A stretch of 54,330 bases of DNA from Chromera velia (taxonomy: Eukaryota; Sar; Chromeraceae). Below are positions 9,021 to 17,366 of this stretch, one piece after another (position 1 is the first letter of the stretch; each line of letters opens with the position of its first letter). Below the pieces are notes generated by a model. It did no database searches and had not been told where the DNA came from. It worked only from the letters and a program-made list of their open reading frames with translations. The position numbers and the translations under genes are program-made. The stretch is from positions 1 to 54,330 of the forward strand of contig JAHBMJ010000188.1 of the NCBI GenBank assembly GCA_018398765.1. The letters are read 5' to 3'.

Positions 9021-12000
9021 CTAAAATTCTCCTTTCAACGAGTCTCGAAGCTTCCTCGCGTCCCCTTTTTTCTTTCCGCTGTTTCCCTTTGACCTCGACT
9101 CCTTTTTCTTGACGGCAGCACGGGCCCGCTCGCGCACCTTCGAAGAGTCATACCTGAAGGCAAAGAAAGAGAACAAAACAAAACGGGAGCTAGAGAGATA
9201 GAGCCACAAATTCGGAGCATATGCAAGCCTGGGGCAGGACGGGGCTTACAGCTTGAGATCGAATGACGGGGCTTACAGCTTGAGATCGAATGAAACAACA
9301 ATCGATTAGCGGCTCCAGATAGCCAAGCGAACAGAGGCAGAGAGACCGGAGGCTATAGGCGGAAGAGGAAGGGTGTGTAGAAAGAGAGAAACAGAGAGAT
9401 AGATAGAAAGGGAGACAGAGGGAGAGGGGGAGAGAGAGAGGGAAGAGCAAGGATGCCGAGGAAGAAAAAAAGAAGTGAAAAAAAACACTACGTGCGCAGA
9501 AGTGCACGGAAGAAGAGCACACCGCAGGAGATCTCTATCCATCTGCAAACAGCCGAGAATCTTAAACCAAGGCCAACGAGAACGCACCCATTTCTGAACT
9601 GACTGACTTCTTGCCACTCGGACGCCAAATGTGTTCAATTTTGTCCTTTCGAGGACGAGGGGCCCTTTCTCCCTCTCCCCCTTCTCCTTCTTCTTCCTCT
9701 CCGTCCTCATCCTCATCTGACGATTCGTCTTCTCCCCGCCCCTCCTCTCCTTCCCCTTCCCCCTCTTCTGGTCGTAGAGAGGAGGACAGGCTAGGAACCT
9801 CACCCTCACGCTCTATAAACGGGTCTTCATCTTCACCATCCTCTTCTCCTTCCTCCTCCCCTCCCCCCTTCCCATCCTGGGCAGAGGAGGAGGAGGAGGA
9901 GGACGGACCGGGATCAGAAGAGCGCACGTCCGCAAACCCTGCAGAAGGTCCATCCTCCCCGTCGCCCCCTTCCGCCTCGCCCTCCTCCTCCTCCTCAATC
10001 GCCTCCCCTCCCTGCACATCGGTCGGACAAAGAACACGAAGGGGGGAAGAGAACCGGTGTATAACGACTGAAAGAAAAAGAAAAAGAAAAAAGGGCCCCA
10101 CGGCAACCCTCACGCAAAACAAAGGCCCTGCATGTGAGTCAGCTCTCTGGAGAGAGGCACTTTTTTCTTCCCCAACGTCGAGTGTACCCATGCAGGGAAA
10201 ATGATGGGAGGAACGGGGTGCACAGGAAGCATTGGCGTGAGACAGGACACGAAAGCAACCGAGAGAGGACACAGGGAAGGAGACGTTCGCTCCCCCCCTT
10301 TTGACATCTTTGAAGCGTAAAAGAGGAGGATTGTTCCATTTTCGCTCCAAGCCCTCCGTGCTCTAACGTTCATTTCATTGATAGAGAGCAGACCTTCTCT
10401 TCATCGTCGCACGTAACGGTTTCGCTCCCCCCCCCCCCCCCGCCCTGTCTCCCCCCCCCTGTTGCTCTCTGTTGGAAGTGCGGAAATAAATCCCACTTCA
10501 CTCGAGGCTTATTGACGTGAACAGACGAAAGAGCAACAAGTGTACGCACTCTACAAACACCATCCAACCAGCCTTCCTTCTTCCCCTTTTCATTCAAATG
10601 CTCACTTCATTCCCTGCCCCCTCACCTGTGCAGCAGTTTCTGTGTCTGCTGTGCCCTCCTCAGCCTGTGTCCTCCTCTCTTCCACCGCCTCAAGGAGCAA
10701 GAGGTTCTCGGCGGCACTCACACCCATGCGCTGGGCAAACTCCAGCGCTTGTGCATGTGCGGAGTTGCGAACGATTCTCTCCTTGTGCGCAGCGCTGCCA
10801 GTGGGGGGCGCTGCCTCCTTCTCGTTGACGATGTCTTTAAACCTGCATGGGGCACAAAAATGCGTTTATTAAATTGAGCTAGATGACGAAACGTTGCTTT
10901 CAAAGATCACTTATCATTCGTGCGTGGAGTCGGGGAAGGAACGGAAGTCAACGAAGTTCAAGGGCTGTCAGGGAGCAACAGAGAAACTCGAGGGTCGAGA
11001 CAGTCAGATTAGGGATGGAAAGATGGAAAATAAAAACAAGGAAAGAACATATGCGATGACTGGGAGGAAAAAAAAAACGCAAGCGACAAACCAGCTAGCT
11101 GTGGTACTGACTCACTTACTTGGGCACTTCCTCGACCTCGATTCCAAATTTCTTTGCGAACAGAGTCGCCACACAACGCACATCCCTGTCGAAATACATT
11201 TCGGCATTGGGATGGCTGACTGGCACGATCTGGGGGAAGTCTGCAGACAAAATTAAGAAAGGCGTCGAGGGAGCCATCAAAAGGAAGTTAACTTCCAGAG
11301 AAACTCGAGACTCTTGTGTATGGAGGCAGATGGTACTCATAGGGAAAATAGAGACGGAACGGAAGGCAGACTTTATCGCAAGAAAGGAAAGAGACAACTG
11401 ACAGACGGACGTACTGACCGATCAATGTCACTTCCTCGTCATCGCTGAGCATCAGGTTGAATTCATTGAAGTCCCCGTGAATCAACCCCGACTGCGCAAG
11501 TCTGATGATCAAATGCATCAATTTCTCCAGAACTTTGAAGGGACGCTCAAGGGATCGCACTTGAACTAGAGGGGTGGCATCAACAAAGCCCATCACAATG
11601 GCATGACGGTTCACGTCGACTGGCTCAGGCACGGGGAAACCGTTTTCCTTTAAAGCTCTCATGTATGCAAACTCTTTCAAAGCAGCGAGTCGCGCCAGAT
11701 ACATCCAGCTGGCGTTGCTTCTGTGCTGGAGGTAGTCTCTGTTGGTCTTTACAGACCGGAAGGAGACTCTTCCCAGTCGATGAAGCTTCAGGATCAAAAC
11801 GCGGCCTTCCTCGTCTTTGCAGAGATGGATATCTGACTCCTTCCCCACACCCATGCGAACCCCCACCCCTGATATCTTACCCCGATGCACCAACACTTTC
11901 AGCGCCAGGTAGTCATAACCTAGGTAGGTCAGTTTGTACCCGTCGTACTTCTTTCGGTCATGTGCAAGCAGCTTGTGTTTGAGAAGATTGGAAAGGATGG

Positions 12001-12148
12001 AATGGATCCCGTGCCTTCTCAAATTGGAAATCGACTCGATCAGCGGAGTCGGCACGTACTCGTGGTTCTTGTGACCCATCTCAACTGCTGTCAGAACACG
12101 AAAATCCGCTTTCGAGAGGTAACGGAAGACCTCCGCGTCCAACTTCAT
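9021..12148 (-). CDS. RIOK2: RIO2 atypical protein kinase
   Basis: Five exons, read from high to low coordinate: 12148-11419, 11240-11120, 10842-10626, 10011-9608, 9153-9021; phases close to give 534 residues. RIO2 binds pre-40S ribosomes in nucleus and cytoplasm and uses ATP binding and hydrolysis for final 18S rRNA maturation and release of assembly factors. Seen: an N-terminal winged-helix domain (about 1-84, with FRVLTAVEMGHKNHE), P-loop GVGKESDI near 101-107, ATP-binding Lys in LILKLHR (121), catalytic loop HGDFNEFN with Asp226, and the metal-binding Asp at 244 created across the exon 1/2 junction (TLI-DFPQ). SHPNAEMYFDRDV is a RIO2 signature. Exon 4 is a long acidic Glu/Asp/Ser segment and the last exon is a basic tail, as in other RIO2 proteins. 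Intron 4 contains a duplicated 27-base segment near 9239-9292. Confidence 0.96.
9239..9292. repeat. Tandem duplication of 27 bp in RIOK2 intron 4
   Basis: The unit GACGGGGCTTACAGCTTGAG followed by ATCGAAT occurs twice in a row with no change, which points to a recent local duplication. Confidence 0.9.
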
Positions 12149-13249
12149 CTTGTATTGACTTCAAAGGAGAAACCGGGATCGGAGACGGGATAGGAATTCA
12201 CAAAGTTAGGAGCCCAGTCAGCGATCAAATCAAACCGCCACTGAAACCTCACTCAAGCACTTTTCAGCTAAGCTTTTCATAACACGTTTCGGAACAACGA
12301 GTGCTAGCAGCTGTTCGCCAAGCTACAGATGCTGCTCCGCAGTCGGCAGAGAGAATGCATGGGATAACCGTGCACGAGAAGGGCGCAAAGCCGATTTTTG
12401 CACGTCTCGTATGTGACTCAAAGCCGATTTCAGTAAATTAAGCTCGATCCGCCTGGCGGCGCACCCTTCACCGCCCCCCCCGCGCGCCGTAGCGCGCCGC
12501 CACCCCAAAAATTTTTGATAGGCATGTTTTGATGATTGAGGTTTTTGTTATGCATGCCACGTCCCCGTGTATGAGAGGCGGATCTAGCCTAGTCTGTCAA
12601 AAGGTTCCGGTTCGTCCCGTCTGTTCTGGCATGTTTCACTGTGTTAACTGTGTTTTGATTAGTTTTGATGTGGAGACATGCACTACCCAGATAGGAGAAA
12701 CTAAGAAAAACTTCCATACCCCCTCGAACCTACTACTTAATACCTACTAATAAGTTTGTAAAACTATGTAAAACTCTTTTATCTCCGCATGTCTTCTTAG
12801 TAAATATATTTTCCCTTGATCATACATTTTTTTTTTTTTACAGTATAACTTATCAAATATTATCAAAGTATTACAAAGTATGTCAAAATTGTGAACGAGC
12901 ACCATCAGATCAGGCGCCTAGGGCCCCTCTTCTGAGAGTATCTGCATGGGGAGTTTAACATTAACTAACGTTAACTTAGCCTTACCTAGCCTTTAGTCTC
13001 ACTCTGCCGTAAATAGTACCTTTAAGTGCCTTGTTACATGACTATGGTAACCCACAGACTCGATCATTCATCGCTCTGTACTACTTTATAGTGCTAGTAA
13101 CAAAAAAATTTTTTTTCTCTACTTTTCATCAAATCAACATATAATCTTTTAAAAATGAAACACGTTTTAGAATAACTTAACTCAAGTTAAACTTGTACCA
13201 AGGAACTTAAAGAAAGCATACATACAGTGTGTATATATGTATTATGTGT

Positions 13250-13297
<48 letters not shown>

Positions 13298-13381
13298 ATG
13301 TGTGCATGTGTGCATGTGTGCATTTGTGCATGTGTGTGTGTGTATGTGTGTGTATGTGTGTGTGTGTGTTTGTATGTGTGT

Positions 13382-13424
<43 letters not shown>

Positions 13425-13431
13425 TATGTGT

Positions 13432-13484
<53 letters not shown>

Positions 13485-13778
13485 TGTGTGACATTGGCGT
13501 GATGGGAAAACCAACAGTATACTTTATACAACAAGAACTGCAGACTGCTTGTTACAAAGCCCTGTCAAGAGTACGGCCGGGGGGCTGGCGGGGGCATAAC
13601 AAGGAACAGTATCAGGAAGCATACTGAGTGACAGGCCATATGATATGAAAAAATGTAAAGACAATCAACTCTCAGCCTTAAAAGGGACAAATCGAACGGA
13701 ATTCTTCGAGAAAGGAAACATGATAAAAGAAAATCACAAAATGAATTCTAGTTTCTTCATTTATGAACCTCATCAAAT
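12149..13778. other. Intergenic region upstream of RIOK2
   Basis: About 12149-12520 should contain the RIOK2 promoter and 5' UTR. The rest is AT-rich with no supported gene. A 270-base GT microsatellite occupies 13222-13490. Open frames through that tract (Cys/Val or His/Thr repeats) are artefacts of the dinucleotide. Confidence 0.6.
13222..13490. repeat. (TG)n microsatellite
   Basis: About 270 bases of alternating TG interrupted by CATG, TATG and TTTG variants. Alternating purine-pyrimidine tracts of this length can adopt Z-DNA. Confidence 0.97.
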
Positions 13779-13878
13779 TAGAATATTGCTTTTGTATTGG
13801 GACACTGGATGCCTGCTAACCAGATTTTGAGATCTTCCTCCTCCTCCAAGTCTCCCGCGCATGCATTTTTGGAGTCAT

Positions 13879-15015
13879 TCACTGTAGATTCTCTACCCGA
13901 TTGTTTAAAGGATCCCCATCCATGTGGTCGACATGAAGGGTTCTTGCGTCGGCACCTCCAGCCACGAGAGCCTGCTTTTGCTCTTGCAGAAAGGCCTCGG
14001 CAACAAGTCGATGAACTCGAAAGTGCTTTCCTTTCACATGAGTGTACAGATATCCGCAGATCACAGATCCCGTACTGACTCTTCCATTTGAATCTCTCCG
14101 ACGTCCGTTGTTTGAGACCTCTATGCACGGAGTCAGGTCCAGATTCTCATACCTGGGTTCACGGATCGGTACAAGTCGACCGTTGTGGTCGTGGACAAAG
14201 TAAAGTCGCTTGAAATGCTCACCTTCCTGTAATTGCATCTTTCCTGGGTCAATTCTGATCTTCCAGCCCTTGATGTCTACCCCAGAAGGATTGCAGGAGA
14301 GGTGTGCCGATGATAACGAGCCGCGGCTGCCGGTACAAGTCTTCAAAAATCTTGCACAAGCAAGGAGACTGGTGAAGGTCTGTTCTTCCTCCGTAACTAG
14401 ATTTTTCGCAAAGACGGGGAAAGCATGTGAAGGCGTTCGGCGGGGTGTGTCGCGCGATGCTACCGTCTTTCCACTGTGCTCCTTTGGCGTCACCCATTGC
14501 AAATTCTCAACAGCATTGTTTTTCCTGTCCCCGTCCTTGTGGTTCACATGCAGGCACACATTAGGAAATTCTTTTGCTTTGTTCTCTCTCTCTTTTGACA
14601 AAAACGTCAGCGCGACAAGTCGGTGTACAGTGTGTGTGTTGTTTCTACCGAAGGCTCGTATGAATGCTCTGAAATAACCAGAATTCTTCTCCAGATTCCC
14701 CTTTCCTTCTGGACCGATAAGATGTCCGCGGCTATTCTAAATTTTTCCGCTTCGGGATACTTTCCACCCACACAATACACCGTTGAAGAGCGGAGGGATG
14801 TCCATAAATTCTTCTTCCTTACCCTCATGACTGCTCACAACTCCCTTGGTCCTCAGGCTGTTGTCGTTGAAGTGCCTGAGAGTCGAAAAATGGCGGTCCG
14901 AATGCCCACTTTGGAGCTGCAGCAAGCGATGTGGAGCTATGGACAAGAGAGGAGCCTGTAGCAGCGATTTGCTAGTCTGAAATAGACGGGCGACACGGGT
15001 TTGGCAACTGCGCAT
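13879..15015 (-). CDS. Two-module HNH nuclease with mitochondrial-type presequence
   Basis: Modelled as two exons, 15015-14823 and 14708-13879, joined by a 114-base GT-AG intron (donor GTAAGG, phase 1), giving 340 residues. Exon 1 encodes an Arg/Ser/Leu-rich leader with no acidic residue for about 37 positions (MRSCQTRVARLFQTSKSLLQ) and then DRHFSTL, typical of a mitochondrial presequence. Exon 2 carries a first HNH module (TVHRLVALTFL, HVNHKDGDRKNN near 118-129, ENLQWVTPKEH), then a stretch like the NUMOD1/IENR1 DNA-binding repeat of intron-encoded nucleases (FTSLLACARFLKT), then NUMOD4-like EVSNNGR, then a second module (FRVHRLVAEAFL, HVDHMDGDPLNNRVENLQ). The second module stops at TGA where the first has Trp; after the TGA the frame still reads MTPKMHAR, matching VTPKEH. 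The family cuts DNA and is found in homing elements of phages and organelles. The presence of a nuclear intron argues for a host-adapted gene. Whether it is active is unknown. Confidence 0.8.
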
Positions 15016-17366
15016 GCTTTTGGTATTGCTTGCCCCCGTGCACCCCCCCTCAAGTTGGTTCAGTGAAGGTTCAGACCGTTTTGTTCTGTCCGTCCAGCCG
15101 ATTATGTGTGGAGCGTCCGTGTGTATCAAAGCCACAAAAAATTGCGCTAGCCTAGCTGTGAAGAAGTCACTTAGAAGTGACGCAAAAACTTGCTATCACT
15201 GCTGTGTGTAGCCTGCTTCCTGGCCGGCATGCAGGCAGTCCCAGGCTTGGAGTGGCGCACCATGCATGCATGCATGCATGCAAGGATTGCAATCTGACGC
15301 AAGCAAGCTGCATGCAAGAAAAATGAGAACTTCACGATTGACGCACGCCGGCCAGCTGACCAGGTGCCGGGGGGACACAAAAAAATTCGCGTGTCCGATG
15401 GTATCGGATAAGGGGGGAGGGGGGGGGACCGCGATCGGAAGAATGTAAAAGAGTCCCTGATAAGTAAATTGAAAACTTTCGGAGCATCTATACTGTCATT
15501 CAAGAACCAATATTGAAGGTTCATAGACTCACACTCCCAATCAGAGGTCTCAAGTTTTGTGCCTTGAATTTTCTCTGTATAGGCGATGATCCTTCATTTT
15601 TTTATTTTTCTCCTGCCATACATTTTTTTTGACCGGCGAAGCCAGAAGGCTTCTGGACACACTTTTTGCGCCCCCCCCCCNNNNNNNNNCTCCACGGGAA
15701 AAGCTACAGAAACCCCCCTCCCCCAGGAAAAAAGCCCAGGGATGCAGCCTGTCGCTCTCCGGGGCCACTGATGCACGCGACGCGGGACCCCGGTTCATAC
15801 ACGCTTTTCTGGACCATTTGGGGTGGGATCTTTCCGGGGCCTTTTTTTGGTGAAAGACACTGTGTGCATAGGCTGGGGTATTTCTCTTTTATAAATGCTC
15901 CTCGCTTCGCTTTCCGGGCCACAATGTAACACGATCCTCTTTAGTCTCTCTCTGGTCCTGTGTCAGGCCAGTATGCATCTTGCCTAGGCATAGATCCTGT
16001 CCGTCTGTTACGTGCTGTCAGCGCAATGATGGCCTTGCCCCCCTCCCAGACTAAGCCATCGATCCTAGTTTATACCTTTTATGACAAACAAAAATTAATG
16101 TTTTTCATTCTCCGTGTGTTCGCATGGTCAACTCTGTCTATCTATAGATGAGCGTAGAGGTCTTCTTTCCCCTTCCCGGCTTCTTCTTCAGTGATGCCCG
16201 TGTCCAAATAAAAAAAATTGTTTCTCCTCAACATTTCTTTGTTAAACTTTTTTCATCACATCAATTTTCTCTCTCTCATACGCTTAACGGCTTTCGACTT
16301 CTTATTCATGTTTCTTCAATCTGATGTTACAAGGCTCTTCTTCTCTTTTTTATCTTTTACACGCATCACCTATAGAAATAGTCTTTTTCTTTCCTTCATT
16401 TCCCCTGCGAGTGCCCTGCTGGCTTTCCCCCTTCCTTTACTTTTTCTTCTCTGCAAGACATCAATGCAACGCGTACATGCATGCATACATGCAGTCGGCG
16501 CACATCGCGTGCCACTTCGTATGTTAGACTATATAGCAGCTGCTAGTAAGTAGCATGTAAGCTAAAGTTTCAATTCTGTGAAACGAAATCGTCCCTCTCA
16601 GCTTGCAGTCCAAGTCACACATGTTCCAGAATTTGTGTGAAGAACTTAAACCTGGACTTCAGGAACGATAACTGTAACCTCAGTCTGTAAGGGAATTGAC
16701 TTTTTTTTTTTTAGTTTGGCATTTTCTGTAGTCGTTTTTCTTATAGGTGTAAGTACAAGCCGTCCCCCGGTAGACTCGATGGTGGTGGACTTGAGGACTA
16801 CATCTGGAACACTGTGGACGTTTTGATCTGACGAAGACGGTCTCCGCCCAGCGCTGAAGGCGCCGGCGCGCTTTCTGCCTGCGTGCCGAAGGCGCACGGG
16901 CGGCTTTTACCAGAATTTGAATGCCAATAAATTAAAAGAGACTACTAAATGGAAAATAATACAAAAAAAATTATATTATACTATAGTATAATTTTATGAT
17001 TCTAACTATACTCCTATACATTGCTTTATCACTATCATGAGTAATGACGAGTAAAATCTATAATTAATTAAATGATAAATTTTGGTATGAACCTGGATTC
17101 GAACTAAAAATATTAAAATTACTATAAGAAAGCAATGCTAAGTTATGCGTCATGTACAAATATCAAAAATCTGGATTTGTTTAAACATACGACGTGTCAT
17201 ACGTCAAAAGAGGTTAACCATAGTTGACCGGCATAAAAAAAATAACTTTTCAATTACACTATGATTTTATAGTTATGACCTAGAAAACAACGCAATGGCC
17301 GGTGTTGGCCCTAGCGTTGGCCGCTGAGTGGCGTATTTCTTGACTTCAACTTGAAGGGAAGGATTC
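15016..17366. other. Intergenic region with assembly gap
   Basis: No supported gene. It contains a TGCATGCATGCA run near 15262-15282, a run of N at 15681-15689 flanked by poly-C/poly-G (an unresolved homopolymer), a T-rich stretch, and very AT-rich DNA at 16920-17290. A tRNA T-arm-like word on the minus strand near 17092-17104 could be a degraded SINE. The 5' end of the HNH gene lies at its left edge. Confidence 0.5.
15681..15689. other. Assembly gap (N run)
   Basis: Nine N between a poly-C tract and TCCACGGG. Open frames spanning it are not reliable. Confidence 0.99.

What the first reader, a model, noticed from the sequence alone, without database searches (positions are those of the whole stretch)
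13879..15015. Nuclear, intron-bearing, mitochondrion-directed HNH protein with two homing-type modules
Seen: an Arg-rich, acid-free leader on its own exon, joined in phase to an exon with two HNH_3-like modules separated by NUMOD1/IENR1-like and NUMOD4-like stretches. Known: such modules occur mainly in intron-encoded or free-standing homing nucleases of phages, bacteria and organelles. Inference: a homing nuclease moved to the nucleus, gained an intron and a presequence, and may now act on mitochondrial DNA, either as a domesticated recombination/repair factor or as a nucleus-based selfish element.
Basis: partly seen in the sequence, partly recalled or inferred. Interest (0 to 1): 0.75.

Follow-up and report, generated by a model that had tools for sequence, protein, structure and literature searches.

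The report
Broken copy of algal double-HNH nuclease
This stretch of an algal nuclear genome is a broken, intron-free copy of a gene family whose intact members encode proteins with two DNA-cutting HNH modules behind what looks like a mitochondrial address label; the proposed intron is not supported, while the family itself looks undescribed and worth study.

Summary
The two HNH modules and the Arg-rich leader are real; the intron is not supported. The window lies in a Chromera velia-type nuclear genome with 26 loci of one double-HNH family. In 22 of 26, both HNH units lie in one open frame. The window copy aligns with them colinearly in a single frame from the ATG at 15015 to a stop at 13816-13818. 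The claimed end, TGA (13879-13881), is a second premature stop inside HNH module 2. This copy alone among 23 aligned also has Asn for Asp in module 1. Best reading: a young pseudogene; sequencing error cannot be excluded. The intact family is the interesting part: two I-HmuI-like units in one chain, acid-depleted Arg-rich leaders, purifying selection, a Vitrella homologue, and no paper found. Most likely they are mitochondrion-addressed DNA nicking or cutting enzymes, perhaps acting on the fragmented, recombining mtDNA. Location, expression and activity are untested.

The parts
13816..15015 (-). Whole broken gene in one frame: ATG at 15015, last matching codon ends at 13819, final TAG 13816-13818
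   Evidence: tblastn and alignment with 22 other copies
14887..15015 (-). Leader, residues 1-43, Arg-rich, acid-free to residue 39, ending R-H-F before S-T (presequence-like)
   Evidence: cleavage place is inferred
14709..14822 (-).
14725..14808 (-). First NUMOD4-like stretch, interrupted by the TAG
   Evidence: alignment
14737..14739 (-). Premature in-frame stop TAG
14473..14628 (-). HNH_3 module 1
   Evidence: E 5.1e-6
14542..14544 (-). Asn codon where the 22 other aligned copies have Asp, next to the first HNH His
   Evidence: aligned to Asp of I-HmuI
14248..14424 (-). NUMOD1/IENR1-like stretch between the modules
   Evidence: profile alignment to the C-terminal part of I-HmuI
14020..14127 (-). 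Second NUMOD4-like stretch
   Evidence: alignment; Pfam below cut-off in a paralogue
13855..13938 (-). HNH_3 module 2, with the TGA inside the match
   Evidence: E 3.2e-6, '1 TGA'
13879..13881 (-). Second premature in-frame stop TGA, before the last conserved His of module 2

Best explanation
The window holds a young pseudogene: an intron-free member of a nuclear double-HNH family of Chromera velia that has lost its reading frame to two stops. Shown: one frame, two premature stops, a changed Asp in module 1, and 22 of 26 family loci uninterrupted. Inferred: intact members are made in the cytosol, carried into mitochondria by the leader, which is removed near an FST motif, and then bind and nick or cut DNA with two I-HmuI-like units in one chain. 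I-HmuI-type enzymes nick one strand, so a tandem pair could make two nicks. Mitochondrial DNA is the most likely substrate, and a host role in its recombination or upkeep is more likely than selfish homing.
For: Colinear single-frame alignment with paralogues. Claimed intron: pS 0.44-0.52, pN 0.13-0.20 against four relatives. TAG where 22 of 22 other aligned copies have a sense codon, TGA where 22 of 22 have Trp, Asn where 22 of 22 have Asp. 22 of 26 loci uninterrupted. Family kept by selection: dN/dS 0.125-0.350 in 11 intact pairs. I-HmuI match by profile (E 1.1e-15) and by fold (E 1.9e-7). Leaders of 20 copies: 18 acidic residues of 700, 73.9 expected from the rest of the proteins. Nicking by I-HmuI-type enzymes: PMC3428280 passages.
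Against: The window copy shows no relaxed selection (dN/dS 0.33, 0.24, 0.29 to its three nearest relatives, as among those three) and no indel, as an intact gene with sequencing errors also would. No second near-identical copy exists in the assembly to check it (next best 71%). No localisation, expression or activity data; no trained targeting predictor was run. L013 lacks such a leader and L031, L032 show no start codon before it. My strict cleavage motif is in only 6 of 24 (2.2 expected).
Confidence: 0.7

Rival explanations
1. The gene is intact and the stops are assembly or sequencing errors, so the window copy is one more working family member.
For: No indel, dN/dS like intact copies, frame ends where relatives end.
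Against: Two separate stops plus a unique change at an otherwise invariant Asp would all be errors, and no other one of the 22 uninterrupted loci shows any. One run of N lies outside, at 15681-15689.
Confidence: 0.13
2. One reading: the TAG is removed by splicing 14709-14822 and a shortened protein is made.
For: In-phase GTAAGG..CAG pair.
Against: It deletes a block with W and G in 23 of 23 aligned copies, 70 such pairs exist here and 64-115 in intact copies, and the product still ends at the TGA inside module 2.
Confidence: 0.04
3. Stops are read through or recoded (TGA as Trp is known from the Chromera plastid, recalled), giving full-length protein.
For: TGA sits at a Trp column.
Against: TAG would need recoding too, and 22 of 26 loci of the family need none. 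The window also holds a RIO2 kinase exon, so it is nuclear.
Confidence: 0.02
4. For the family: a selfish element of the nucleus, where copies spread by homing or transposition.
For: 26 loci, homing-type modules, birth and decay (C2006 holds a broken 94% copy of part of L026).
Against: In an all-against-all comparison similarity is almost confined to the gene; exceptions are short repeats and a 1.5 kb upstream stretch shared by L020 and L025, found at three places in the genome. No Rfam match, group I introns included, in 8 sources. Leaders fit an organelle.
Confidence: 0.1

Closest known systems
I-HmuI (PDB 1u3e), nicking HNH homing endonuclease of phage SPO1
   Same: Each unit has the N-terminal stretch, HNH core and, in the first unit, the C-terminal IENR1-like part; profile E 1.1e-15, fold E 1.9e-7
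   Different: Two units in one chain, nuclear gene, leader, many paralogues, no group I intron detected; third HNH position is His in 23 of 23 module-1 sequences, Asn in I-HmuI by the alignment
Free-standing and intron HNH/NUMOD4 endonucleases of phages and bacteria
   Same: PHROG HNH families match (phrog_59 E 1.2e-41 for L020)
Nuclear-encoded organelle proteins with homing-type domains, such as plant MSH1 or OTP51 (recalled, no call)
   Same: Homing-type domain in a nuclear, organelle-targeted protein
   Different: Other nuclease folds, plants, few copies (recalled)

Membership tests
HNH_3 endonuclease domain (PF13392) | Pfam score above curated cut-off | tested here: met
   50.8 bits against 24.8 for the window piece; 58.6-68.1 for 4 paralogues
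HNH_3 endonuclease domain (PF13392) | H-N-H residues kept in both modules | tested here: met
   Module 1: 23 of 23 at each of three positions; module 2: exceptions L029 (one) and L022 (two); in the window copy module 2 is cut by TGA before its last His
I-HmuI-like homing endonuclease | Sequence and fold relation over the full I-HmuI length | tested here: met
   Profile match to residues 7-170 of 174; Foldseek first hit, but rmsd 12.6 over 196 columns and target TM 0.47
I-HmuI-like homing endonuclease | Encoded in a group I intron | tested here: not met
   No Rfam match at gathering score in the window and 7 of the other 25 loci
I-HmuI-like homing endonuclease | Site-specific nicking and mobility | not testable with these tools
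   Needs biochemistry; no shared target-site flank seen
   Claimed intron is itself coding in relatives
Mitochondrial protein | Leader with the composition of a presequence | tested here: met
   18 acidic residues of 700 against 73.9 expected, 106 basic, 20 copies; amphipathic moment above the shuffled median in 18 of 20
Mitochondrial protein | Observed location in the organelle | not testable with these tools
   Needs tagging, import assay or proteomics

The most novel reading that the evidence does not exclude
Chromera velia keeps a nuclear battery of some two dozen mitochondrion-addressed tandem nickases, each with its own DNA preference, that make paired nicks in mtDNA and so drive or manage the fragmentation and recombination of its linear mitochondrial genome; the window copy is one specificity recently lost.
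Probability: 0.25. Interest if true: 0.75.

Novelty: new variant of a known kind. Interest (0 to 1): 0.42.

Why it matters
It removes a false gene model and shows how easily an in-phase GT..AG pair can hide a stop. The intact family, for which I found no paper (open-licence library only), is a concrete lead to nuclear HNH enzymes that may act on the fragmented, recombining mtDNA of chromerids, whose upkeep could then be tested gene by gene.

Tried and rejected
Intron: rejected on alignment, pN/pS and the number of equally good splice pairs. Recoding: rejected, 22 of 26 loci need none. Shared flanks as a sign of homing or transposition: almost none beyond the gene, apart from short repeats and the L020/L025 stretch. 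Group I intron: no Rfam match in 8 sources. NCBIfam: no family for the window piece or L020. A strict leader motif proved weak (6 of 24 against 2.2 expected). For a looser motif (16 of 20) no chance level was computed. Ten of the 25 window frames of 220 aa or more were scanned with Pfam: 9 without match, one RIO2 exon. Relaxed selection in the window copy was looked for and not found.

Full report
What is there. On the minus strand an ATG at 15015 lies in a stop-to-stop frame (15192-14737) that ends at TAG 14737-14739; the very next codon, in the same frame, opens the 285-codon frame 14736-13879.

Whose genome. The window is G000:C187 of an assembly of 177.8 Mb in 4040 contigs. Public proteins P0002, P0003 and P0005, labelled Chromera velia CCMP2878, are 100% identical to loci L011, L009 and L027 of this assembly. 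The published assembly has 193.66 Mb in 5953 scaffolds (PMC4501334, passages), so the held one may be partial. A RIO2 kinase exon at 11288-12160 fits a nuclear contig.

Why the intron is not supported. An own-genome search with paralogue L020 gives 28 matches, which I count as 26 loci; the other 25 were fetched. In 22 of 26 both HNH units lie in one open frame (C239 has its start hidden by N). The other four are the window (TAG and TGA), C2006 (fragment with a stop), C287:6506 (frame change, then a gap) and C1625 (cut by a gap). I aligned 23 of 26, leaving out the last three. The window copy runs colinearly with L020 from 15036 to 13822 at 61-62% identity. The claimed intron aligns to a block found in the other 22, with W and G in 23 of 23. 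Within it the window copy against L017, L020, L025 and L032 gives pS 0.44-0.52 and pN 0.13-0.20; three intact pairs give 0.54-0.65 and 0.17-0.22. Seventy in-phase GT..AG pairs of 60-300 bases bridge the TAG; eight intact paralogues, with no stop to bridge, have 64-115.

The copy is broken. TAG sits where the 22 others have Gln (15), Lys (4) or Arg (3); TGA sits where 22 of 22 have Trp, before the last His of module 2; module 1 has Asn where 22 of 22 have Asp. That Asn may be tolerated: environmental relatives P0007 and P0008 show Asn or His there. After the TGA the frame still matches for 20 codons and ends like its relatives. From the ATG only 92 codons can be read. dN/dS to L017, L020, L025 is 0.33, 0.24, 0.29, against 0.31, 0.35, 0.26 among those three; private one-base codon changes are 17 silent and 8 replacement (others 14/4, 21/5, 19/9). 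So breakage is recent or the stops are errors. No second near-identical copy exists to decide (next best 71%).

What the intact family is. All 23 aligned copies have two HNH units by a unit profile built from this family. The family profile matches I-HmuI (1u3e) over residues 7-170 of 174, E 1.1e-15; the window piece alone matches at E 3e-5. The model of P0001 (36-row alignment, pLDDT 80.2, pTM 0.63, residues 1-62 under 50) finds 1u3e first, E 1.9e-7, target TM 0.47, rmsd 12.6 over 196 columns; every other hit is at E 0.6 or worse, I-PpoI among them. I-HmuI-type enzymes are nicking enzymes (PMC3428280, passages). Eleven intact pairs have dN/dS 0.125-0.350; several have dS above 1, so the ratios are rough. 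In the comparison of the 26 stretches, reported matches lie almost wholly in the gene; exceptions are short repeats and a 1.5 kb stretch upstream of L020 and L025, 90% alike, at three places in the genome.

Leader. In 20 copies with a usable start (the window included; start codons chosen partly from the alignment), the first 35 residues hold 18 acidic residues of 700, 73.9 expected from the rest of the proteins (binomial P 6e-16), and 106 basic ones. The amphipathic moment exceeds the shuffled median in 18 of 20, never decisively. A loose motif (aromatic or Leu, then S, then S/T/A) occurs in 16 of 20 without a chance level; a strict one in 6 of 24 rows, 2.2 expected. Chromerid plastid proteins carry a signal peptide before the transit peptide, mitochondrial ones an amphiphilic helix (PMC6668581, passages), so mitochondria fit better, but no predictor was run. 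L013 has no such leader; L031 and L032 have no start before it.

Relatives. Vitrella protein P0006 has two modules and pairs with metagenome protein P0004 (98/98); both fall in one 26-row branch with the 24 Chromera rows (100/100). One origin of the Chromera rows is not shown: L013/L031 may split first, and the other 22 group at 86/78. The window joins L017, L020, L025 at 100/99. P0007, P0008 and P0046, on unnamed contigs of 2.0 Mb, 126 kb and 445 kb, also have two units; P0008 and P0046 carry HFST in front. Of 133 proteins returned by two searches (the second listed 120 of 180), 77 have one unit, 48 two and 8 three, so doubling as such is not unique.

How it most likely works. Inferred throughout: nuclear gene, import into mitochondria, leader removal, DNA binding by the NUMOD/IENR1-like parts, nicking by one or both HNH units. 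[quoted passage not shown] None of these steps is shown.

In print. Chromera with HNH: 0 papers. Nuclear-encoded HNH endonuclease with mitochondrial DNA and dinoflagellate: 0. HNH with NUMOD4, nuclear genome and mitochondria: 1, on polinton-like viruses (listing). Chromera velia with homing endonuclease: 2, on organellar introns and green-algal chloroplast genomes (listing). The genome paper's main text has 0 occurrences of HNH and 2 of endonuclease, one seen to be in a reference. The library holds open-licence papers only, and supplements were not searched.

Noticed in passing
11288-12160 (-): Exon of a RIO2 kinase (Rio2_N E 2.4e-34), next to the broken HNH gene.
   Followed up: no
13240-13490: Long GT/TG-rich microsatellite just downstream of the broken gene.
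   Followed up: no
L020:340-1818 and L025:1-1467: 1.5 kb stretch 90% alike upstream of two paralogues whose genes are only about 71% alike; three places in the genome. Conversion, a repeat or a conserved gene could explain it.
   Followed up: partly
L033:2170-3049: Broken fragment 94% identical to part of L026: another decaying copy.
   Followed up: partly
L032:2275-2407: Presequence-like stretch in frame but without a start codon; a real upstream exon or a lost start is possible.
   Followed up: no
26 loci of G000: Only 3 of 26 loci match a public protein returned by the searches (P0002, P0003, P0005); Chromera protein P0001 matches none of the 26 closely (best 59%), so the family is larger and mostly unannotated.
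   Followed up: partly
L190: Contig filed as an Aliiroseovarius MAG with two frames of two HNH units each; could be foreign DNA in the bin.
   Followed up: no
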